Counted from the stretch's first letter, positions 272 through 9,159 are shown. The stretch is 64,000 nt of DNA from an uncultured Gammaproteobacteria bacterium (GCA_947258875.1 CAMYKB010000002.1:1-64000), one strand, 5' to 3'. The notes: generated by a model not told the origin, from the sequence alone. Program-made: numbers and translations.

Positions 272-631
272 TTAAATACTTGTCGCATCGTTATCGCGGC
301 TGTTTGCCATCATGGCTTACGGTGTTGGTCCGCCCCGCCTGTTGCCGATACTGTCATCAATATCCTAAGCGCTCTGGCGTGCTGCTCTATACGGAACTAC
401 CCGTATAATATGATTTCGTGTAATATTTGCATTAGGATGGTTTTGTAATTAATTGATTCATATATATTTTCAAGGAGCAGTGCCATGCTGTTTCAAAGAT
501 TTTGCCCAGCTAATAATGGTTTCCACACCATGATGACGTTACAAAACAAGAGGCTTCGGGCATAATCCACGCTGATACAAGCAGTTATAACAATATAGTT
601 ACAAAATAAGTAACAACTACGAGGAATAACA
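272..631. other. Intergenic region upstream of the response regulator
   Basis: This 360-base gap has no convincing long gene. The 9-mer GTTACAAAA occurs at 538-546 and again at 598-606, exactly 60 bases apart, with a related GTTATAA at 584-590; these could be half-sites for the OmpR-type regulator encoded just downstream, but that is inference. A 26-codon ORF (485-565) preceded by AAGGAG is the only small coding candidate and has no recognisable product. Confidence 0.35.
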
Positions 632-1336
632 GTGAGGATAGCACTACTCGAAGACGATCATGATCAGGCCAAGCTGGTCAGCCTGTGGTTGGATGAGGCC
701 GGTCATCAGATAATTCATTTCGATTCGGGCCGCGAGGCGGTAAAGGGGGTAGTTAAGGAAAGCTTTGATCTGCTCATCCTGGATTGGATGGTCCCCGATA
801 TGAGTGGCCTTGAGGTACTCAAATGGGTGCGTGAGAACGTTGAATGGCATATCCCGGTGTTATTCGTTACCCAGCGAGACACAGAGGAGGATGTTGTCAG
901 CGCCCTGGAAAGCGGAGCAGACGACTTCATGACTAAACCCGTCAAGCGTATGGAGTTGCTTGCACGCATCAACTCGATTGCGAGGCGTGTCGGCACCGTG
1001 GATGAGGCCAATACGCTGGTGGAGTTTCCACCATTTGTGATTGATCGCGCCATACGCGTGGTCAAATCTCATGATGAGGAGATTGAACTCACCCAGAAGG
1101 AATATGAGCTGACGCTGTTTCTGTTCCGTAATGCGGGCAGGGTATTGTCCAGGGGGCATATTCTGGAAACCGTCTGGGGTCGGAGTTCAGAAGTGAATAC
1201 ACGCACGGTTGATACCCACATCAGTCGTTTACGCCGCAAGTTGGGTATATCGCCCGAGAATGGCTGGAAGCTGACCTCGATTTACCAACATGGTTACCGG
1301 CTGGAGCGCACCCAGGCAACCGAACAAACACACTAA
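632..1336 (+). CDS. OmpR/PhoB-family response regulator
   Basis: A 234-residue two-domain regulator. Residues 1-115 form a receiver domain with acidic pocket E7-D8-D9, phospho-acceptor D51 in LILDWMVPDMSG and K102 in TKP. Residues about 130-228 form a winged-helix DNA-binding domain of the OmpR type, with the usual LTQKEYELTLFLFRNAGRVLSR and RTVDTHISRLRRKL segments. The start is GTG at 632, placed behind GAGGAA. No partner kinase lies next to it in the classical arrangement, but a hybrid kinase and an Hpt protein are encoded 3-7 kb downstream on the same strand, which makes it the probable DNA-binding output of that phosphorelay. Confidence 0.93.
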   Translation: MRIALLEDDHDQAKLVSLWLDEAGHQIIHFDSGREAVKGVVKESFDLLILDWMVPDMSGLEVLKWVRENVEWHIPVLFVTQRDTEEDVVSALESGADDFMTKPVKRMELLARINSIARRVGTVDEANTLVEFPPFVIDRAIRVVKSHDEEIELTQKEYELTLFLFRNAGRVLSRGHILETVWGRSSEVNTRTVDTHISRLRRKLGISPENGWKLTSIYQHGYRLERTQATEQTH

Positions 1337-1405: not shown

Positions 1406-1960
1406 ATGTCAAAGAAAGATACTCCGGCAAATATGGATGAAGCAGCAGCTGGCGGCAATGTCGAGCAAATCAGGGATATTCTGTTCGGCGGACAGATGCG
1501 TGAGTATGAACGCCGTTTTAAACAACTCGAAGAACGCCTCATTAACGAGAGTGAAAATCTCAGAGGTGAATCGGACAAACGCATTGCGGCGCTTGAGGCA
1601 TTTGCCAAGAAGGAACTCAACAAACAAACCGAGGATCTCCAGCATGAGGGCAAACTGCGCGATGCTGCAATAAAGGATTTGAGTAAATCGCTAGAAAGCG
1701 TGAAGCTATCGCTTGAAGAGCGCATCACTACCATGCAGGAACGCGCCACCAGGGATTTGTCAGAGATTCGCGATCAACTGCATGCGCAGGCGAAAGAGTC
1801 GACTGAGCAAATACGCTTGATGCAGACAAATATGGCGCAATCGCTGGAGCAGGAAAGTAACACGCTGCAGGAAAGCAAGGTTGGGCGTGAAGATTTGGCT
1901 GATTTGCTGGCTGAAATGTCATTGCGGTTGAAAAGAGAATTTGACATGCCAGAGGACTAA
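1406..1960 (+). CDS. Coiled-coil protein with N-terminal IRDILFG motif
   Basis: A soluble 184-residue protein that is almost entirely charged heptad-type helix (about residues 30-170), without signal peptide or membrane segment. Near residues 20-45 it carries IRDILFGGQMREYERRF followed by LEERL. A similar but shorter pattern (LKRLLLG, then KKLEDRV) begins the OmpA-like protein encoded next, suggesting the two proteins bind a common partner or each other. The start at 1406 has AAGGAT seven bases upstream. The function is unknown. Its position between a response regulator and the GTPase/kinase run makes a scaffold or adaptor role likely, but nothing in the sequence proves this. Confidence 0.75.
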   Translation: MSKKDTPANMDEAAAGGNVEQIRDILFGGQMREYERRFKQLEERLINESENLRGESDKRIAALEAFAKKELNKQTEDLQHEGKLRDAAIKDLSKSLESVKLSLEERITTMQERATRDLSEIRDQLHAQAKESTEQIRLMQTNMAQSLEQESNTLQESKVGREDLADLLAEMSLRLKREFDMPED

Positions 1961-2172: not shown

Positions 2173-4110
2173 TTGAACGAAATAGATGAACTTAAAAGAC
2201 TCCTCCTTGGGCAGGAGCTCGAATCAGTAAAAAAGCTTGAAGATCGTGTTGCCGATCCCGGGTTGCGTGCTCAGGATGTCGCTGAAATTCTCCCTGATTC
2301 CATTGCTTTAGGCGTTGAAAAAAATCCCCGCCTGATACGTGCCCTTGAGCAACCTGTCAGCGAATGTCTGAAACAATCTATTCGCAAGGACACCAAGATG
2401 TTTGCCGATGCCCTGTTTCCGGTGATGGGGCCTGCCATTCGTAAAGCGATAGCTGAAGCGCTGAAATCCTTCAGCGATGCCATTAACCAGGCCATGGATC
2501 TAACCTTCTCGGCAAAAGGCCTCCGCTGGCGCTGGGAGTCAATACGTACTGGTGTACCGTTTTCACAGGTCGTACTCAAGCATACGTTACTGTATCGGGT
2601 CGATCAGGCCTTTCTCATTCATCGTGAAACCGGTTTGTTGATCGATCATGCTGCACAGCCTGATGTCGCGCACAGTGACAACGATGCGGTATCGGGCATG
2701 TTTACGGCCATTCAGGATTTTGTGCGGGATTCTTTTTCAACGGGTGCGAATAGTGATCTTGATTCGGTTGATATCGGTGAACAGACCGTATGGCTGATAC
2801 ACGGCCCCTATGCGATGCTGGCCTGTGTTATCAGTGGTGTTGCGCCGCGGGAATTGCGGCAGCGTTTTAAGGAGGTCCTGGAGCATCTGCATCAGTTGTA
2901 TGGCAGGCAGCTCGAGGAATTTGATGGCGATGCGCGTGAATTGACAGGGGTTGAGCACTCACTTGATGAATGTCTGACGTTGCAGCTTAAGCATGATGCA
3001 GCAGACGGGGCTTCAAGAAAGAAACCCTTTCCGGTGCTATGGGTGATTTTGGGAGTTATTGGATTGCTGTTGATTGCGTGGTGGCTGTTTGACTACCTGG
3101 AAATGCGGCGCTTTAACAATCTACGCGCCGAGATAGATGATGCTCCGGGCATTGTGTTAGTGAGGGCCGACAAACGAGGCGGTGAGTATGTTGTTAAGGG
3201 ATTGCGTGATCCTTTAGCGTTGGACCCCAAGCAACTTGCTGCAGCGCACGGGTTTGAGGCTGAAGAAATTATGTTCGATATGGCGCCTTACCAGTCAGTC
3301 GACACAGCAATTATTCTGGAGCGGGCGCGGCGCTTGTTGTCTGTGCCGGATACGGTGAATCTGAGTCTGGACGATACGGTGCTAAAATTATCAGGCAGCG
3401 CCCCACTCGAATGGATTTCAAAATATGCCAATACGGTGCTGGCAATAGCCGGGATCGATGCGATTAATTTAGATGATGTCCAGCCTGACTCCAGTAATTT
3501 AGATGATGTCCAGCCTGACTCCAGTGCACGTAACGAACAGTTACTCAAGCAACTCGCGGCGCCAGGCACGATTAAAGTAGTAATTACGGGGAATAATGTC
3601 GAACTTGAAGGGCTTGCGTCTTTGGAGTGGATTCATGCAGCGTCCGCAAGCCTCAAAGCGGCAAACTGGGTGCAGGGGGTAGATGCGAAAAAACTGAAGC
3701 TGGCTGAGGCTGATGCGATATATGAACTCGCGCAGCGCATCGGAAACGTAAAAATTTATTTTAGTAACGGCAGTATTATGCAGGAAGATGCCAATCAAAC
3801 TTTGCGTGACGTTGCTGAAGACATAAAAACATTATCTGAGATTGCGAGAAAAACAAACCTAAATCTAAAGATTAAATTAATCGGACATGCCGATTCTGTG
3901 GGCAACTCCATACTTAACACGAGGTTGCGGGAGCAGCGTGCCAGTGCCGTCCTGACCAGTCTGTTGTCGCAGCATCTTGATGCGGATTTATTTACACTCG
4001 TCGTTGGTGATGAGGTGCAACAAGTTCAACAAATCAATCCTCAATGGAGGCGTGTAGATTTTGAAGTCAATGTTGGTCGGCCGAATATACAGGCCTTGTT
4101 CGCAAAATGA
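2173..4110 (+). CDS. Inner-membrane OmpA-family protein with large cytoplasmic domain
   Basis: A 645-residue protein with no signal peptide and one membrane helix at about 287-306, so residues 1-285 should lie in the cytoplasm and the rest in the periplasm. The cytoplasmic part has a helical N-terminus and a mixed alpha/beta segment at about 138-253 (FLIHRETGLLIDHA ... WLIHGPYAMLACVISG) that looks like a roadblock/longin-type fold. The periplasmic part has two BON-like segments (about 313-410 and 455-512) and an OmpA C-terminal domain (about 525-635). In the latter D574 and R589 are spaced like the two diaminopimelate-binding residues of OmpA. A TAG lies three codons upstream, so TTG at 2173 is the earliest start. 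It overlaps the GTPase gene by ATGA. Confidence 0.85.
   Translation: MNEIDELKRLLLGQELESVKKLEDRVADPGLRAQDVAEILPDSIALGVEKNPRLIRALEQPVSECLKQSIRKDTKMFADALFPVMGPAIRKAIAEALKSFSDAINQAMDLTFSAKGLRWRWESIRTGVPFSQVVLKHTLLYRVDQAFLIHRETGLLIDHAAQPDVAHSDNDAVSGMFTAIQDFVRDSFSTGANSDLDSVDIGEQTVWLIHGPYAMLACVISGVAPRELRQRFKEVLEHLHQLYGRQLEEFDGDARELTGVEHSLDECLTLQLKHDAADGASRKKPFPVLWVILGVIGLLLIAWWLFDYLEMRRFNNLRAEIDDAPGIVLVRADKRGGEYVVKGLRDPLALDPKQLAAAHGFEAEEIMFDMAPYQSVDTAIILERARRLLSVPDTVNLSLDDTVLKLSGSAPLEWISKYANTVLAIAGIDAINLDDVQPDSSNLDDVQPDSSARNEQLLKQLAAPGTIKVVITGNNVELEGLASLEWIHAASASLKAANWVQGVDAKKLKLAEADAIYELAQRIGNVKIYFSNGSIMQEDANQTLRDVAEDIKTLSEIARKTNLNLKIKLIGHADSVGNSILNTRLREQRASAVLTSLLSQHLDADLFTLVVGDEVQQVQQINPQWRRVDFEVNVGRPNIQALFAK
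3465..3524 (+). repeat. 30-bp perfect tandem duplication inside the OmpA-like gene
   Basis: The 30-base unit starting TAATTTAGATGATGTCCAGC occurs twice without mismatch at 3465-3494 and 3495-3524. It adds ten residues (NLDDVQPDSS twice) to the linker between the two BON-like segments and keeps the frame. The identity implies a recent slippage or duplication. Confidence 0.95.
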
Positions 4111-4616
4111 GCGCTGTGCTCAGCAAAAAAGTCTGTCTTATCGGGGATTTCGCGGTAGGTAAAACCAGTCTGGTTGCGCGCTTTATTCATAATGTTTTTT
4201 CAGATAAATATCTTACTACTTTGGGTGTCAAGATCGACACCAAGACTGTCGAGCCTGAGACTGGCGTCAGTCTGAAGATGATAATATGGGATATCGCGGG
4301 CGCTGACAGGTTGAGTACCGCGGACCGGAATTATTTGCGTGGCGCCGATGCTTACCTACTGGTCGTGGATGGTACGCGGCGCGACACCTTGATTGCGGCG
4401 TTGGATCTCAAACAGGCAGTGGATCGTATGCTTGGTGATATACCTTTTGTTTTGTTGGTAAATAAAAGCGATCTTCAGAGTGATTGGGAAATCACTACAC
4501 AAGATATCGATTTACTTAAAGATCGCAACTGGGCAGTACTGACATCCAGCGCCATGCAGGGTGATAACGTAGAACTGGCATTTACACTTCTGGCCGAGGA
4601 ATTAACCAAACCATGA
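4107..4616 (+). CDS. Small Ras/Rab-like GTPase (bacterial Rup type)
   Basis: A 169-residue single-domain GTPase. The G1 loop is GDFAVGKT (13-20), a switch-I threonine lies in LTTLGV (37-38), G3 is WDIAG (61-65), G4 is NKSD (119-122) and G5 is TSSA (146-149). The residue after G3, where Ras and Rab have the catalytic glutamine, is alanine (A66), so intrinsic hydrolysis may be slow and depend on a partner. The C-terminus ends in AEELTKP without cysteine, so no lipid anchor is expected. Start and stop overlap both neighbours as ATGA, which indicates translational coupling with the OmpA-like protein and the kinase. Bacterial homologues of this type are known as the Rup family, related to MglA. 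Confidence 0.9.
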   Translation: MSAVLSKKVCLIGDFAVGKTSLVARFIHNVFSDKYLTTLGVKIDTKTVEPETGVSLKMIIWDIAGADRLSTADRNYLRGADAYLLVVDGTRRDTLIAALDLKQAVDRMLGDIPFVLLVNKSDLQSDWEITTQDIDLLKDRNWAVLTSSAMQGDNVELAFTLLAEELTKP

Positions 4617-6139
4617 CTCTCCCGTTTGAAATCGCGCGCAAGTTGCGCCAGCTGGCAACCGATCGTCTGAGGCCGTTGGTGTTGATTATTGATCGCAACA
4701 TGAGATTGTCAGCCTGGTCCGGTGACGCGGAGTTCTACGGTTTCCCTGCCATTAATGTTGGTGACGACGCGCAACAGACTTTCGATTTTCTGACCGGTGT
4801 TGATTCTAAGGAGGCATTTGATTTGCCGTTTGTGGCTATGCCGAACGGCTTGTATGCGCACGTTGATATTATCCCGGGAGGACAATATTTGTATGCTGTG
4901 CTGATGGACAGCAGCGAGGAACATGCGCGCCAGCAAGAATTACAACAAAAGGCCAACGAGTTGGCACTGTTGCATTATACGCAAACAGCATTGATGAAAG
5001 AACTGGAAAAGGCTAAGCAGCTTGCTGACGAAGCGAGTGAAGCAAAAGGCCGTTTTATTGCCAGTATGTCGCATGAGTTTCGTGTGCCACTGACATCGTT
5101 GCTGGGTTATTGCAGCTTGCTGAGGGAGCGTTGGCAAGATCATCAGCAAGACTTGCAACATCTTGATGCGATCGATCGTGGTGCTAAGCACCTCATGGCG
5201 TTGATCAATAATGTGCTTGATCAGGCGCGTATCGAAATGGACGAAACGGTCATCACGCCCGAGTCTGCTGATTTGTTATTGATTGCTAATGATATACGGT
5301 CAGTATTCGAGCCAATCGCAGCACAGAAAAAGTTGGCTTTCAAGTTTGCTATATCAAATGAATTCGCAAGGCAAGTATTGGTCGATGATACGCGCCTGCG
5401 GCAGGTGCTGATCAATATTGTTGGCAACGCTTTCAAGTACACGCAGGAGGGCTCGGTTACGGTAGATATGCGCTGGCATGAGGGCCGTCTTCGTGTCGTA
5501 GTTACAGATACAGGGCCTGGTATCAGTTATCAACAGCAAGGGCACGTATTTAAAGCTTTTAAGAGGGCGGACCAGTCAGGACAAAGTGGAGCAGGTCTCG
5601 GACTCTCGATTAGTAAGCGATTGGTCGAGCTGATGGGCGGTGAATTGTCGCTGGTTTCAGAGCCTGGTGCTGGTTGTGCATTCATTTTTGATCTGCCTGC
5701 GCCTGAGGTGAACCATTCTGCTGATGAGGAGGCCGCGGCAGTCATTGTTAATGAAGGTAAGGTGGCCGGACAGGCGGGAGTGATACTACTAGCCGAAGAT
5801 AACGACGATATTGTAGAACTCATAAGGTTATATCTCTCAGAAGCGGGCTATGAATTATTGGTCGCGCGTGACGGTGAGCAGGCGACTCAGCTGGCGCTTG
5901 AACATCAACCCGATTTGATCTTGATGGATATGAATATGCCGAAGGTGGATGGCTTTACTGCAACTCGTCAGTTACGCGATTCCGGTTTTGATAATCCCAT
6001 TGTCGCTTTGACGGCTTCCCCCATGGACAGTGATCGTGCCCGCGCACGGCAGGCCGGGTGTACGGAATATGTGTTAAAACCCATTGAAATGGCACAGCTT
6101 GTCGCGCTAGCCGAGCGCCTGACAACTGCAAATGCCTGA
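4613..6139 (+). CDS. Soluble hybrid histidine kinase (PAS-like, HisKA, HATPase, REC)
   Basis: A 508-residue hybrid kinase without membrane helices. The order is a PAS-like sensor segment (about 10-105), a helical linker, a HisKA domain with phospho-acceptor H154 in SMSHEFRVPL, a HATPase domain with N272, a G1 box at 299-303 (DTGPG) and a GAGLGLSISK lid, then a receiver domain (about 388-500) with D439 and K489. As it is cytoplasmic it must sense an internal signal or another protein, and the co-translated GTPase is the obvious candidate. It lacks an Hpt domain, which the next gene supplies, so the expected relay is H154 to D439 to H53 of the downstream protein. Confidence 0.92.
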   Translation: MTLPFEIARKLRQLATDRLRPLVLIIDRNMRLSAWSGDAEFYGFPAINVGDDAQQTFDFLTGVDSKEAFDLPFVAMPNGLYAHVDIIPGGQYLYAVLMDSSEEHARQQELQQKANELALLHYTQTALMKELEKAKQLADEASEAKGRFIASMSHEFRVPLTSLLGYCSLLRERWQDHQQDLQHLDAIDRGAKHLMALINNVLDQARIEMDETVITPESADLLLIANDIRSVFEPIAAQKKLAFKFAISNEFARQVLVDDTRLRQVLINIVGNAFKYTQEGSVTVDMRWHEGRLRVVVTDTGPGISYQQQGHVFKAFKRADQSGQSGAGLGLSISKRLVELMGGELSLVSEPGAGCAFIFDLPAPEVNHSADEEAAAVIVNEGKVAGQAGVILLAEDNDDIVELIRLYLSEAGYELLVARDGEQATQLALEHQPDLILMDMNMPKVDGFTATRQLRDSGFDNPIVALTASPMDSDRARARQAGCTEYVLKPIEMAQLVALAERLTTANA

Positions 6140-7788
6140 TGCTTTCTGATACAGCTCAATTCCGGCTTGAACAGCTGAAAGAGACATACCGTGCTTCGTT
6201 TGCTGAAAAGCGTCGGGATTTTATGGCGTGTTGGGAGGATGTCGAAACCACTTCCTGGAGTGAAGCGTCGCAGTCCAAGCTGATGCAGCTATCTCATCGC
6301 CTGGCGGGTTCTGCTGCGTCTTATGGGTATGATGCGCTTTCGAAGGAGTGTGCCGAGATTGAGGCTTTATTGAAAACATTGGAGCAGGGAAGTCCTGTAG
6401 CCAGCGATATTTGCCAAGCAATTTCCAAGCATTACAGCATCATCATCGCCTTTTTTGACGAGGAGCTAAACCTTGCTGATGCCATGCAGGGTCTTGCAGT
6501 AACTCAGGGTTTGCAACGTAAAAGTATCCGCTATAAGGAATCGCATATTCTGGTGATTGACCGTAGCACCGATGCAGCTGGCTCATTGGCTACCCTGCTG
6601 GAGAGCCGTGGTTATACCATAAGTGCATGCTCTGAGCATGAAGCAGCATTGTCTACAGCAGGCCGAATCAGGCCGGTCATTGTTATTATCGATATTATGT
6701 CGGGAGACGATACAGCGTCATCGTTTGCCATGGCAAGTGATATTGAGCAGCTACTGGGTTACAAGCCTGGCCTGGTTTTCACTGGTGCAGATGATGACTT
6801 TGAGTTACGCATGCAGGCTGCAAGGCAACAAGCAGACGCTTTTTTTACCAAGCCGGTGAATGTGCATGCAATGTCTTCAGCGCTGGATGTCTTGCTGGAA
6901 TCATACGTTGGATGTCAGGGCCGCATCCTCATTGTGGAAGATGATGATGATCAGGCCGGTTATTATCGTTCATTGGTCACAGGTATGGGGGCAGTTGGCC
7001 GGGTTGTGAGTGAGCCGTCGACGTTGCTCGAGGTCACAATTGATTTCCAGCCCGAATTAATTCTCATGGATATCGATCTGCCGAATTATGACGGTTTTGA
7101 GTTGACGCGTATGTTGCGTAACCATGAGGGTTATTTCAACATACCGGTGGTGTTCTTGACGCACCTGGATGACCCGAACCTGCATCACAAAGCCCTGCAG
7201 CATGGTGCGGATGACTATCTGCTTAAGTCGGATGATGAAAATGTGCTCATTAATTCGTTGCTGGACCGCATCTCGCGATACCGACGGACCAAGAATATGG
7301 TTATGTTCGACTCCTTGACCGGTGCCCTCAATCGCGGAGCGTTCATCGAGCGCGTCAGCGAAGAGTATGCGGCGCTGAAACGGCGTGGTGAAAGTGCCAG
7401 CATGGCAATGGTTGATGTTGATCACTTTAAGGAGATTAACGATACCTATGGGCATGTTACGGGTGACGTTGTGTTACGGCGGATCGTTGATTTTTTCAGA
7501 CTGCGTCTGCGGCGCTCCGATGTGATAGGCCGTTATGCCGGTGACGAGTTCATTATACTGTTGCCTGGAACCGGGATCGAGGCTGCCCGTAAGTTGCTTG
7601 ACGATATTCGCGGTAACCTGGCTGAGCAGGAGGTTAAGGTCGACCACAGTTCTGTGCGCGTGTCATTGAGCATTGGTGTGGTAGCGGTGGATCCTCAGCA
7701 ATCATTCAGTCTTGATGAAGTGGTTGCTGCAGCGGACAAGCGACTCTACACTGCAAAGATTAAGGGGCGTGATCAGGTTGTAATATAA
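6139..7788 (+). CDS. Hpt-REC-REC-GGDEF protein, predicted diguanylate cyclase
   Basis: A 549-residue cytoplasmic protein. Residues 1-110 are an Hpt domain with H53 in LSHRLAGSAASYG. A first receiver (about 135-255) has D185 and K238 but its acidic pocket reads VIDRS, missing one acidic residue, so it may be degenerate. A second receiver (about 262-380) is complete (EDDDD at 267-271, D311, K363). The GGDEF domain (about 390-549) has the active variant AGDEF (467-471) and an inhibitory I-site R458-x-x-D461 five residues before it. It would receive phosphate from the kinase upstream and make c-di-GMP under product inhibition. The start overlaps the kinase stop as TGATG. Confidence 0.92.
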   Translation: MLSDTAQFRLEQLKETYRASFAEKRRDFMACWEDVETTSWSEASQSKLMQLSHRLAGSAASYGYDALSKECAEIEALLKTLEQGSPVASDICQAISKHYSIIIAFFDEELNLADAMQGLAVTQGLQRKSIRYKESHILVIDRSTDAAGSLATLLESRGYTISACSEHEAALSTAGRIRPVIVIIDIMSGDDTASSFAMASDIEQLLGYKPGLVFTGADDDFELRMQAARQQADAFFTKPVNVHAMSSALDVLLESYVGCQGRILIVEDDDDQAGYYRSLVTGMGAVGRVVSEPSTLLEVTIDFQPELILMDIDLPNYDGFELTRMLRNHEGYFNIPVVFLTHLDDPNLHHKALQHGADDYLLKSDDENVLINSLLDRISRYRRTKNMVMFDSLTGALNRGAFIERVSEEYAALKRRGESASMAMVDVDHFKEINDTYGHVTGDVVLRRIVDFFRLRLRRSDVIGRYAGDEFIILLPGTGIEAARKLLDDIRGNLAEQEVKVDHSSVRVSLSIGVVAVDPQQSFSLDEVVAAADKRLYTAKIKGRDQVVI

Positions 7789-8047: not shown

Positions 8048-8377
8048 ATGAAATCTACTCTGAAGCTTGGAACTATGGCTTCTGTAGCGCTGTTGGCAGC
8101 AATGACCACTGCTTGTTCAACCAGTGATGATAGTGCCAGCGCTACCGCTACAGCCGGTTCCGACATAAATACCCAGTTATCTGATTTACAGAAGCGCGAA
8201 GCAGCATTGAGGGCGCGTGAAAGCGATCTCGCCAACCAGGAGCGTATGCTCAGGCAGCAGGCGCAAAGCGCATCTTCTTCTTCAACCATGGCCGCAGCTG
8301 GTGATCCAAGCCAGGCGAGTGTTATGCACGTGCATTTACACCACCTAAGTACGGTACTGATACACAGCAGATCGTGA
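8048..8377 (+). CDS. Lipoprotein, N-terminal fragment of a frameshifted gene
   Basis: The first 109 codons encode a signal peptide with a lipobox-like LAAMTTAC, putting the lipid cysteine at about residue 23, then a serine/alanine-rich stretch and a short coiled coil (QKREAALRARESDLANQERM). After about residue 90 the frame runs into sequence that does not fit (VMHVHLHHL). Reading one frame over from about 8320 gives CYARAFTPPKYGTDTQQIVK, which joins smoothly to the repeat protein that follows. I therefore read this as the 5' part of one gene of about 370 codons covering 8048-9159, broken by a single-base loss near 8319. A strong AAGAAAGGGAG ribosome site precedes the start. Confidence 0.7.
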   Translation: MKSTLKLGTMASVALLAAMTTACSTSDDSASATATAGSDINTQLSDLQKREAALRARESDLANQERMLRQQAQSASSSSTMAAAGDPSQASVMHVHLHHLSTVLIHSRS

Positions 8378-9159
8378 AACGTGAAGCGGGTGAGCGTATC
8401 CAGATTATTCCTGCCAAGTATGGCAAGGCTACCGAGCAGGTGCTGGTTCAGGAGGCTTCCGAAAAGCTGCAAGTGATCCCGGCAACCTACAAGACGGTTA
8501 CGGAACAGGTTCTGGTGACCCCTGCAAAACAGGTCATCAAGCAGGTGCCGCCTGTCTATGAGACTGTCACCGAGAAAGTTCTCGACAAGCCTGCTCATAC
8601 CACCTGGAAGAAGGGTACGGGCCCAATCCAGAAAATCGATTCCGGTACTGGTGAAATCATGTGCCTGGTCGAAGTGCCCGCTACTTACAAAACCATTACC
8701 AAGCGGATCCTGAAACAGCCGGCAAGCACGCAAACTGTGGAAATTCCTGCAGTCTACAAAACCGTGAAACGCCGTGTTGTTGATCGTCCTGCAACCACCA
8801 CTTCGGTGCCGGTTCCTGCTGTTTACAAGACGGTAACTGTCACCAAGATGCTGGAACCTGCACAGGAAAAACGTATTCCGATTCCTGCTGAATACGGTAC
8901 GGTAACCAGCCGCAAGCTGATCTCCGACGGCAAGATGGAATGGCGCCAGATCCTGTGTGACACCAACATGACTCGCAGCAGAATCACCCAGATTCAGTCC
9001 GCACTCAAGACCAAGGGTTATAACCCGGGTGCTATCGATGGCGTGATTGGTAGTCAGACTATGCAAGCCGTCAATGCCTTCCAGCGTGACAACAAGCTAC
9101 CTGTTGACAAGTACCTGAACATCGCTACCGTTCAAGCCTTGGGTGTCAGCACGCGCTAA
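8374..9159 (+). CDS. Repeat protein with C-terminal peptidoglycan-binding domain (3' part of the frameshifted lipoprotein)
   Basis: Residues 1-195 consist of six or seven imperfect repeats of about 22-25 residues built on (I/V)PA-x-Y-x-TVT-x-x-x-L-x-x-PA, rich in valine, lysine and threonine. Residues about 205-261 form a PG_binding_1 domain (ITQIQSALKTKGYNPGAIDG, then TMQAVNAFQ). The apparent GTG start at 8374 has no good ribosome site, and the open frame extends back to 8305 with matching sequence, so the true N-terminus is the lipoprotein signal encoded at 8048. Expected location is the outer-membrane inner leaflet, binding the wall. A hairpin terminator follows at 9201. Confidence 0.75.
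   Translation: MKREAGERIQIIPAKYGKATEQVLVQEASEKLQVIPATYKTVTEQVLVTPAKQVIKQVPPVYETVTEKVLDKPAHTTWKKGTGPIQKIDSGTGEIMCLVEVPATYKTITKRILKQPASTQTVEIPAVYKTVKRRVVDRPATTTSVPVPAVYKTVTVTKMLEPAQEKRIPIPAEYGTVTSRKLISDGKMEWRQILCDTNMTRSRITQIQSALKTKGYNPGAIDGVIGSQTMQAVNAFQRDNKLPVDKYLNIATVQALGVSTR

What the first reader, a model, noticed from the sequence alone, without database searches (positions are those of the whole stretch)
2173..7788. Coupled operon joining a wall-binding OmpA protein, a Rab-like GTPase, a hybrid kinase and a c-di-GMP cyclase
Four genes overlap at every junction (ATGA, ATGA, TGATG): an inner-membrane OmpA-family protein, a small GTPase, a soluble hybrid kinase and an Hpt-REC-REC-GGDEF protein. 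Two more genes upstream, an OmpR regulator and a coiled-coil protein, complete a six-gene module. Established: OmpA C-terminal domains bind peptidoglycan; Rup/MglA GTPases act as switches; REC-Hpt-REC chains pass phosphate; GGDEF makes c-di-GMP. Inference: the wall state, read by the OmpA protein, sets the GTPase, which gates the kinase, which controls transcription (632) and c-di-GMP (6139). I know of no described system with this combination.
Basis: partly seen in the sequence, partly recalled or inferred. Interest (0 to 1): 0.9.

Follow-up and report, generated by a model that had tools for sequence, protein, structure and literature searches.

The report
Wall-linked bacterial Ras-switch signalling cassette
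A bacterial gene cassette that probably joins a cell-wall-contacting membrane protein to a Ras-like switch, a phosphate relay and the messenger c-di-GMP; the cassette type was described in 2014, but its membrane protein appears to hide a known kind of Ras-regulator fold that had not been recognised.

Summary
The six genes are real, and the three overlaps are exactly as described. The combination is not undescribed. It is a Group 1 "Rup" GTPase system, predicted by Wuichet & Sogaard-Andersen in 2014: coiled-coil protein, unknown domain-TM-OmpA protein, Rup GTPase, and an output protein with an invariant glutamine. I tested those features here and they are met.

Among 29 gammaproteobacterial genomes that carry the OmpA-protein N-domain, the GTPase lies next to it in 27. 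Every intact GTPase locus runs into a signal-output gene.

Three things appear new. (1) The "unknown" cytoplasmic domain folds like a roadblock/longin domain (best PDB match MglB, then Ragulator and longin subunits). A profile comparison with roadblock proteins beats all 150 shuffles. Rup GTPases were defined by lacking an MglB/roadblock neighbour, so this looks like the hidden partner. (2) In gammaproteobacteria the kinase version is a conserved relay: OmpR regulator, coiled coil, OmpA protein, Rup, kinase, Hpt. The window fuses the Hpt to REC-REC-GGDEF, as does one other family. (3) The same genome has a second Rup gene next to an HD-GYP protein.

Direct binding, direction of signalling and wall sensing remain untested. 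Verdict: a known kind, new variant, with one useful structural insight.

The parts
632..1336 (+). OmpR/PhoB-type response regulator (REC D51 + winged helix)
   Evidence: Pfam Response_reg, Trans_reg_C; same gene precedes the cassette in 12 of 14 testable loci with a HisKA kinase output, 0 of 12 with other outputs
1406..1960 (+). coiled-coil cytoplasmic protein with an N-terminal VEQIRDILFG motif (1460-1489)
   Evidence: no Pfam family above cut-off; conserved upstream of the OmpA gene in 25 of 28 testable genomes; motif resembles the start of the OmpA protein
2173..4110 (+). inner-membrane OmpA-family protein: LKRLLLG motif, helical region, roadblock/longin-like domain, TM helix, periplasmic region, OmpA C-terminal domain
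2560..2922 (+). cytoplasmic roadblock/longin-like domain, residues about 130-250
   Evidence: AlphaFold2 order H130-138, E142-150, E156-161, H170-189, E196-201, E204-210, E214-221, H226-248; PDB fold hits MglB, Ragulator, Sec22b longin; profile comparison against roadblock proteins, 0 of 150 shuffles reach the score
3034..3090 (+). transmembrane helix, residues 288-306
   Evidence: hydropathy 2.63 over 19 residues; a hydrophobic segment at the same place in all 31 relatives
3820..4002 (+). OmpA C-terminal domain with the expected peptidoglycan-contact residues D574 (GHAD) and R589 (EQRA)
   Evidence: Pfam OmpA E 2.5e-5; residue positions; role of the D/R pair from general knowledge of OmpA-like domains
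4107..4616 (+). Rup Group 1 small GTPase; G motifs intact, Ala66 at the Ras Gln61 position
   Evidence: Pfam Ras E 1e-29; motifs and residue-66 table
4613..6139 (+). soluble hybrid histidine kinase: PAS-like domain (4676-4909), linker helix with invariant Q111/Q112 (4943-4948), HisKA (H154), HATPase, REC (D439)
   Evidence: AlphaFold2 and Foldseek; Q111/Q112 conserved 16/16
6139..7788 (+). Hpt (H53)-REC (D185)-REC (D311)-GGDEF diguanylate cyclase (AGDEF 467-471, RxxD inhibitory site 458-461)
   Evidence: residues; same architecture at L083:3625-5292
538..610 (.). direct repeat GTTACAAAA(C/T)AAG, 60 bp apart, upstream of the regulator gene; possible binding sites of the OmpR-type regulator (guess)

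Best explanation
This is a Group 1 Rup GTPase signalling cassette in its kinase/phosphorelay form. The OmpA-family protein sits in the inner membrane with its OmpA domain on the peptidoglycan side. Its cytoplasmic part carries a roadblock/longin-like domain that most likely binds the Rup GTPase as MglB binds MglA, so the state of the envelope can change the GTPase's nucleotide state or position. The GTPase lacks the Ras catalytic glutamine. The output kinase presents a surface with an invariant glutamine just after its PAS-like domain, where it most likely meets the GTPase, as effector and possibly as helper of GTP hydrolysis. Kinase activity then passes phosphate from H154 to D439, to Hpt H53, to the OmpR-type regulator (D51) and to the receiver domains of the diguanylate cyclase, changing transcription and c-di-GMP together. 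Shown: membership by neighbourhood and motifs, conserved order, residues; predicted: folds. Inferred: all contacts, signal direction, wall sensing.
For: Published description of the same neighbourhood. GTPase next to the OmpA-N domain in 27 of 29 genomes and followed by an output gene in 28 of 28 loci. No Gln at the Ras-61 position in 31 of 31 GTPases. An invariant Gln in the linker after the sensor domain of all 28 outputs. Roadblock/longin fold of the OmpA protein's domain. PAS-like fold of the kinase N-terminus. The OmpR regulator tracks the kinase output, 12/14 versus 0/12, Fisher p 9.5e-6, phylogeny not corrected. GTPase lineages follow output type in the tree. Complete relay residues.
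Against: No binding or activity data. The OmpA-N model has low overall confidence (mean pLDDT 58.9; about 60-84 in the roadblock-like part) from only five sequences. Pfam Robl_LC7 is not among the families matched by the 33 members, as far as shown. 12 of 31 relatives lack a hit to my OmpA C-terminal profile. One genome (G176) has the OmpA and coiled-coil genes but no detectable Rup. The direction of signalling cannot be read from sequence.
Confidence: 0.6

Rival explanations
1. The signal runs the other way: the kinase or other output protein is the regulator (trans-acting GAP) of the GTPase, and the GTPase with its roadblock-OmpA and coiled-coil partners forms the output, for example marking a place in the envelope as MglA does.
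For: Invariant Gln in all outputs while the GTPase lacks it; the 2014 authors speculated that a GAP supplies the Gln in trans, and argued that in actinobacterial conservons the GTPase is the output.
Against: The outputs are themselves complete effector enzymes (diguanylate cyclase, HD-GYP, GGDEF-EAL, kinases with their own OmpR regulator), which suggests that they are the output end.
Confidence: 0.25
2. The genes are two separate modules that merely sit together: a wall-anchored GTPase complex and an unrelated phosphorelay, with no physical coupling.
For: A 213-bp gap with a terminator-like hairpin between the coiled-coil and OmpA genes; one genome (G283) keeps the GTPase-kinase pair and the CC-OmpA pair at separate places.
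Against: GTPase and output gene remain adjacent even when split from OmpA (L139, L026); output-type swaps follow GTPase lineage; the shared invariant Gln motif occurs in otherwise unrelated enzymes.
Confidence: 0.1
3. The OmpA protein's cytoplasmic domain is not roadblock/longin but another alpha/beta domain with the same order of helices and strands.
For: Low model confidence; no Pfam detection of Robl_LC7; modest hhalign probability (28%).
Against: 18 PDB matches at E<=0.001; the best 18 are MglB, Ragulator/Rag, longin and coatomer-zeta chains and complexes that hold such chains, nearly all of roadblock/longin fold; profile score 26.5 against a shuffled maximum of 22.6 and reversed 11.0.
Confidence: 0.15

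Closest known systems
Group 1 Rup GTPase systems (Wuichet & Sogaard-Andersen 2014, PMC4316618)
   Same: Coiled-coil protein, unknown-domain-TM-OmpA protein, Rup GTPase without G3 Gln, output protein (kinase or c-di-GMP enzyme) whose N-terminal region has an invariant Gln
   Different: The window adds an OmpR regulator and a second, phosphorelay-driven output (Hpt-REC-REC-GGDEF). The roadblock/longin-like fold of the unknown domain was not noted in that paper
MglA-MglB polarity switch of Myxococcus/Thermus
   Same: Prokaryotic Ras-like GTPase paired with a roadblock-fold protein (here predicted) and linked to receiver-domain proteins
   Different: Rup, not MglA, family; the roadblock-like domain is fused to a TM helix and a wall-binding domain; no stand-alone MglB found in this genome
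Actinobacterial conservons (CvnA-D)
   Same: Histidine kinase + roadblock protein + small GTPase in one operon
   Different: The conservon kinase is membrane-bound and has no response regulator; here the kinase is soluble, with Hpt and OmpR regulator, and the membrane part is the OmpA protein
PleD-type response-regulator diguanylate cyclases
   Same: REC-REC-GGDEF with inhibitory RxxD site
   Different: An Hpt domain is fused at the N-terminus and the gene is coupled to a Rup cassette

Membership tests
Group 1 Rup system | small Ras-superfamily GTPase lacking the catalytic Gln of G3 | tested here: met
   WDIAGAD in the window; 0 of 31 sequences have Gln at that position
Group 1 Rup system | neighbouring gene for a coiled-coil cytoplasmic protein | tested here: met
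   1406-1960, profile-conserved in 25 of 28 testable genomes
Group 1 Rup system | neighbouring protein with conserved unknown domain, often with inner-membrane helix and OmpA domain | tested here: met
   2173-4110
Group 1 Rup system | output module (c-di-GMP enzyme or histidine kinase) with N-terminal region holding an invariant Gln | tested here: met
   Q111/Q112 in 16 of 16 kinases; an equivalent Gln in all 28 outputs
Group 1 Rup system | placement of the GTPase in the published Group 1 clade | not tested
   the sequences of the 2014 tree were not retrieved; only neighbourhood, motifs and relatives were tested
Robl_LC7 (Pfam PF03259) family, for OmpA-protein residues 130-250 | match to the Pfam model | tested here: not met
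   no family matched by the window's own domain at E<=10, and Robl_LC7 not among the families shown for the 33 members; no PF03259 hit in the window's genome
roadblock/longin fold, for OmpA-protein residues 130-250 | alpha-beta2-alpha-beta3-alpha fold and structural similarity to known members | tested here: met
   (low-confidence model); profile support
MglA family GTPase | coupled to an MglB homologue recognised by sequence | tested here: not met
   none in the genome by PF03259
Active diguanylate cyclase | GG(D/E)EF signature | tested here: inconclusive
   AGDEF variant with intact I-site; activity of AGDEF variants known from elsewhere (own knowledge), not testable here
Phosphorelay | phospho-acceptor His/Asp in HK, REC, Hpt and regulator | tested here: met
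   H154, D439, H53, D51 present; transfer itself not testable here

The most novel reading that the evidence does not exclude
Group 1 Rup GTPases are not partnerless. Their roadblock/longin regulator has been hidden inside a transmembrane, often wall-binding OmpA protein, which makes this a wall-anchored Ragulator/MglB-like platform. One such platform in this genome may serve two Rup switches: one tied to a kinase relay plus diguanylate cyclase, the other to an HD-GYP c-di-GMP phosphodiesterase.
Probability: 0.5. Interest if true: 0.7.

Novelty: new variant of a known kind. Interest (0 to 1): 0.5.

Why it matters
No Rup-family GTPase had been characterised by experiment as of the 2014 survey, and the family was set apart from MglA because no MglB/roadblock gene lies beside it. 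A roadblock/longin fold in the OmpA protein would remove that distinction. It gives a concrete testable complex (domain 130-250 with the GTPase) and a plausible route by which a bacterial Ras-like switch could read the cell wall and control both transcription and c-di-GMP. The conserved relay form with OmpR regulator and Hpt gives readouts (phosphotransfer, regulator targets) that the c-di-GMP-enzyme forms lack.

Tried and rejected
Sequence search of the PDB with the OmpA-N profile found nothing meaningful. A scan of viral contigs for the OmpA-N domain found no relatives. A first hhalign run with a handful of roadblock sequences was weak (P 0.021, no better than the coiled-coil control at 0.025); it was repeated on the isolated domain with a larger roadblock set (33 sequences before removing duplicates) and shuffled controls. 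The idea that the invariant Gln is limited to kinases and GGDEF outputs was rejected: HD-GYP, GGDEF-EAL and HATPase-type outputs carry it too. The idea that the Hpt-REC-REC-GGDEF fusion is unique to the window was rejected: L083 has it at 34% identity. Whether that fusion arose once or twice is unresolved, because tree support there is low. Literature searches for later experimental work on Rup-OmpA systems returned none in the held library, which lacks most subscription journals.

Full report
Observation. All six ORFs and the three overlaps are present as stated. Pfam and NCBIfam assign an OmpR-type regulator, a coiled-coil protein without a family, an OmpA-family protein (OmpA domain just below the Pfam cut-off, but several NCBIfam OmpA-like models hit the same end), a Ras-type GTPase, a soluble hybrid histidine kinase and an Hpt-REC-REC-GGDEF protein. 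The last four genes are tightly coupled. The first two are separated from them by 213 bp with a terminator-like hairpin.

Already described. Wuichet & Sogaard-Andersen (2014, PMC4316618) defined the Rup family as prokaryotic small GTPases not coupled to MglB. [quoted passage not shown] They found this Gln noteworthy because the GTPase lacks the G3 Gln, which they speculated is provided in trans by an unknown GAP. They stated that no Rup member had been characterised.

Membership tested. A profile of the OmpA protein's N-domain hit 29 of 369 genomes of the class. I annotated the neighbourhoods with home-made profiles. The GTPase follows the OmpA gene in 27 of 29 genomes, counting G267, where the contig break falls between them. 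The exceptions are G283, whose GTPase and kinase sit elsewhere together, and G176, with no detectable GTPase. The coiled-coil gene is upstream in 25 of 28 testable genomes. All 28 GTPase loci whose downstream flank is held run straight into an output gene: 16 HisKA kinases with REC, 8 HD-GYP proteins, 1 GGDEF-EAL protein and 3 kinases found only by their ATPase domain. None of 31 GTPases has Gln at the Ras-61 position (Ala in the window), while P-loop, switch, WDxxG, NKxD and SA motifs are intact. Q111 and Q112 are the only two invariant positions in the sensor/linker part of the 16 kinases. A Gln in a comparable place after the sensor domain is found in every other output.

The gammaproteobacterial relay form. 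When the output is a HisKA kinase, an OmpR-type gene lies upstream in 12 of 14 testable loci; with other outputs 0 of 12 (Fisher p 9.5e-6, relatedness not corrected). A small Hpt gene follows the kinase in several loci (L019, L029, L062, L066, L071-L073, L075) or lies upstream (L018, L063). So the regulator at 632 and an Hpt are regular parts of this form. In the window the Hpt is the head of an Hpt-REC-REC-GGDEF protein. L083 (genome G228) has the same architecture at 34% identity, without the OmpR gene. All phospho-acceptors are in place. The GGDEF motif reads AGDEF with an intact RxxD site.

A second Rup in the same genome. C35 carries a GTPase 50% identical to the window's, followed by an HD-GYP protein (HDIGK and HHExxDGSGYP present) and no OmpA or coiled-coil gene beside it. 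On the GTPase tree it falls with the HD-GYP group, not with the window's GTPase. The genome has one OmpA-N protein only. It is thus possible that one OmpA protein serves both GTPases (inference).

The unknown domain. AlphaFold2 on residues 1-290 with five sequences gave a low overall confidence (pLDDT 58.9), but residues 130-250 (about 60-84) form helix, two strands, helix, three strands, helix. Foldseek against the PDB returned MglB first (E 2.7e-4), followed by Sec22b longin, Ragulator subunits, Rag complexes, COPI/AP longin-like subunits and MglC. As an independent test, hhalign of the 33-member domain profile against a profile of roadblock sequences from the same class gave score 26.5, P 6e-4, colinear over the strand-helix-strand core. 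Column-shuffled controls averaged 11.4 (sd 2.1, maximum 22.6, 0 of 150 reached it), the reversed profile scored 11.0 and six other domain profiles at most 14.8. Pfam's Robl_LC7 model does not see it, which would explain why the 2014 survey missed it. I conclude that a roadblock/longin-like fold is likely, but I do not file it as a Robl_LC7 family member.

The kinase N-terminus. AlphaFold2 (pLDDT 85.8) gives a PAS-like sheet and a long helix 101-146 that holds Q111/Q112. PDB matches are PAS-type domains of kinases and photoreceptors. By the heptad of neighbouring leucines the glutamines would face outwards, suiting a contact site (inference).

Shared motif. The coiled-coil protein (VEQIRDILFG) and the start of the OmpA protein (IDELKRLLLG) carry a similar short helix motif in most relatives, and hhalign aligned these two segments unprompted, though weakly. 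They may dock on the same partner (inference).

Mechanism and limits. The most economical model is: the envelope-facing OmpA protein, through its roadblock-like domain, sets the state of Rup; Rup meets the PAS-linker surface of the output; the output relays phosphate to the regulator and the cyclase. The order of cause and effect is not shown, and the reverse (output acts on GTPase) is a live rival. The OmpA wall-binding domain matches my profile in 19 of 31 relatives, so wall binding is not universal.

Verdict. What is worth keeping is the predicted roadblock/longin partner and the conserved relay form.

Noticed in passing
window 8048-9159: A lipoprotein-like gene with repeated PAxYxTVTxxVL motifs and what looks like a peptidoglycan-binding C-terminus is split between two frames (8048-8377 and 8374-9159), suggesting a frameshift near 8320, natural or an assembly error.
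   Followed up: partly
window 3463-3525: A perfect 30-bp tandem duplication (AATTTAGATGATGTCCAGCCTGACTCCAGT) in the periplasmic part of the OmpA-protein gene.
   Followed up: no
window 538-610: Direct repeat GTTACAAAA(C/T)AAG spaced 60 bp, with an inverted TTTTGTAA at 441, upstream of the OmpR-type gene; possible regulator binding sites.
   Followed up: no
L026:5982-7486 (own genome, contig C35): Second Rup GTPase followed by an HD-GYP protein, with no OmpA or coiled-coil gene beside it; a short stretch at the HD-GYP end reads N.
   Followed up: partly
L064:9190-10677 and L068:313-2319: Output proteins that carry both sensor types in tandem, each with its own conserved Gln motif (QQKxNELxLL and LQxGRE), ending in HD-GYP or kinase respectively.
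   Followed up: partly
L023:2177-7594 (Thermoplasmata MAG): A 1806-residue archaeal protein on the opposite strand beside a Ras-like GTPase matches the OmpA-N roadblock-like region (window residues 141-264, E 7e-16) near its C-terminus, so this domain occurs in other architectures in archaea.
   Followed up: no
L027, L065, L078 (family f33): OmpA proteins with a second, partial copy of the N-domain in front of the full one.
   Followed up: no
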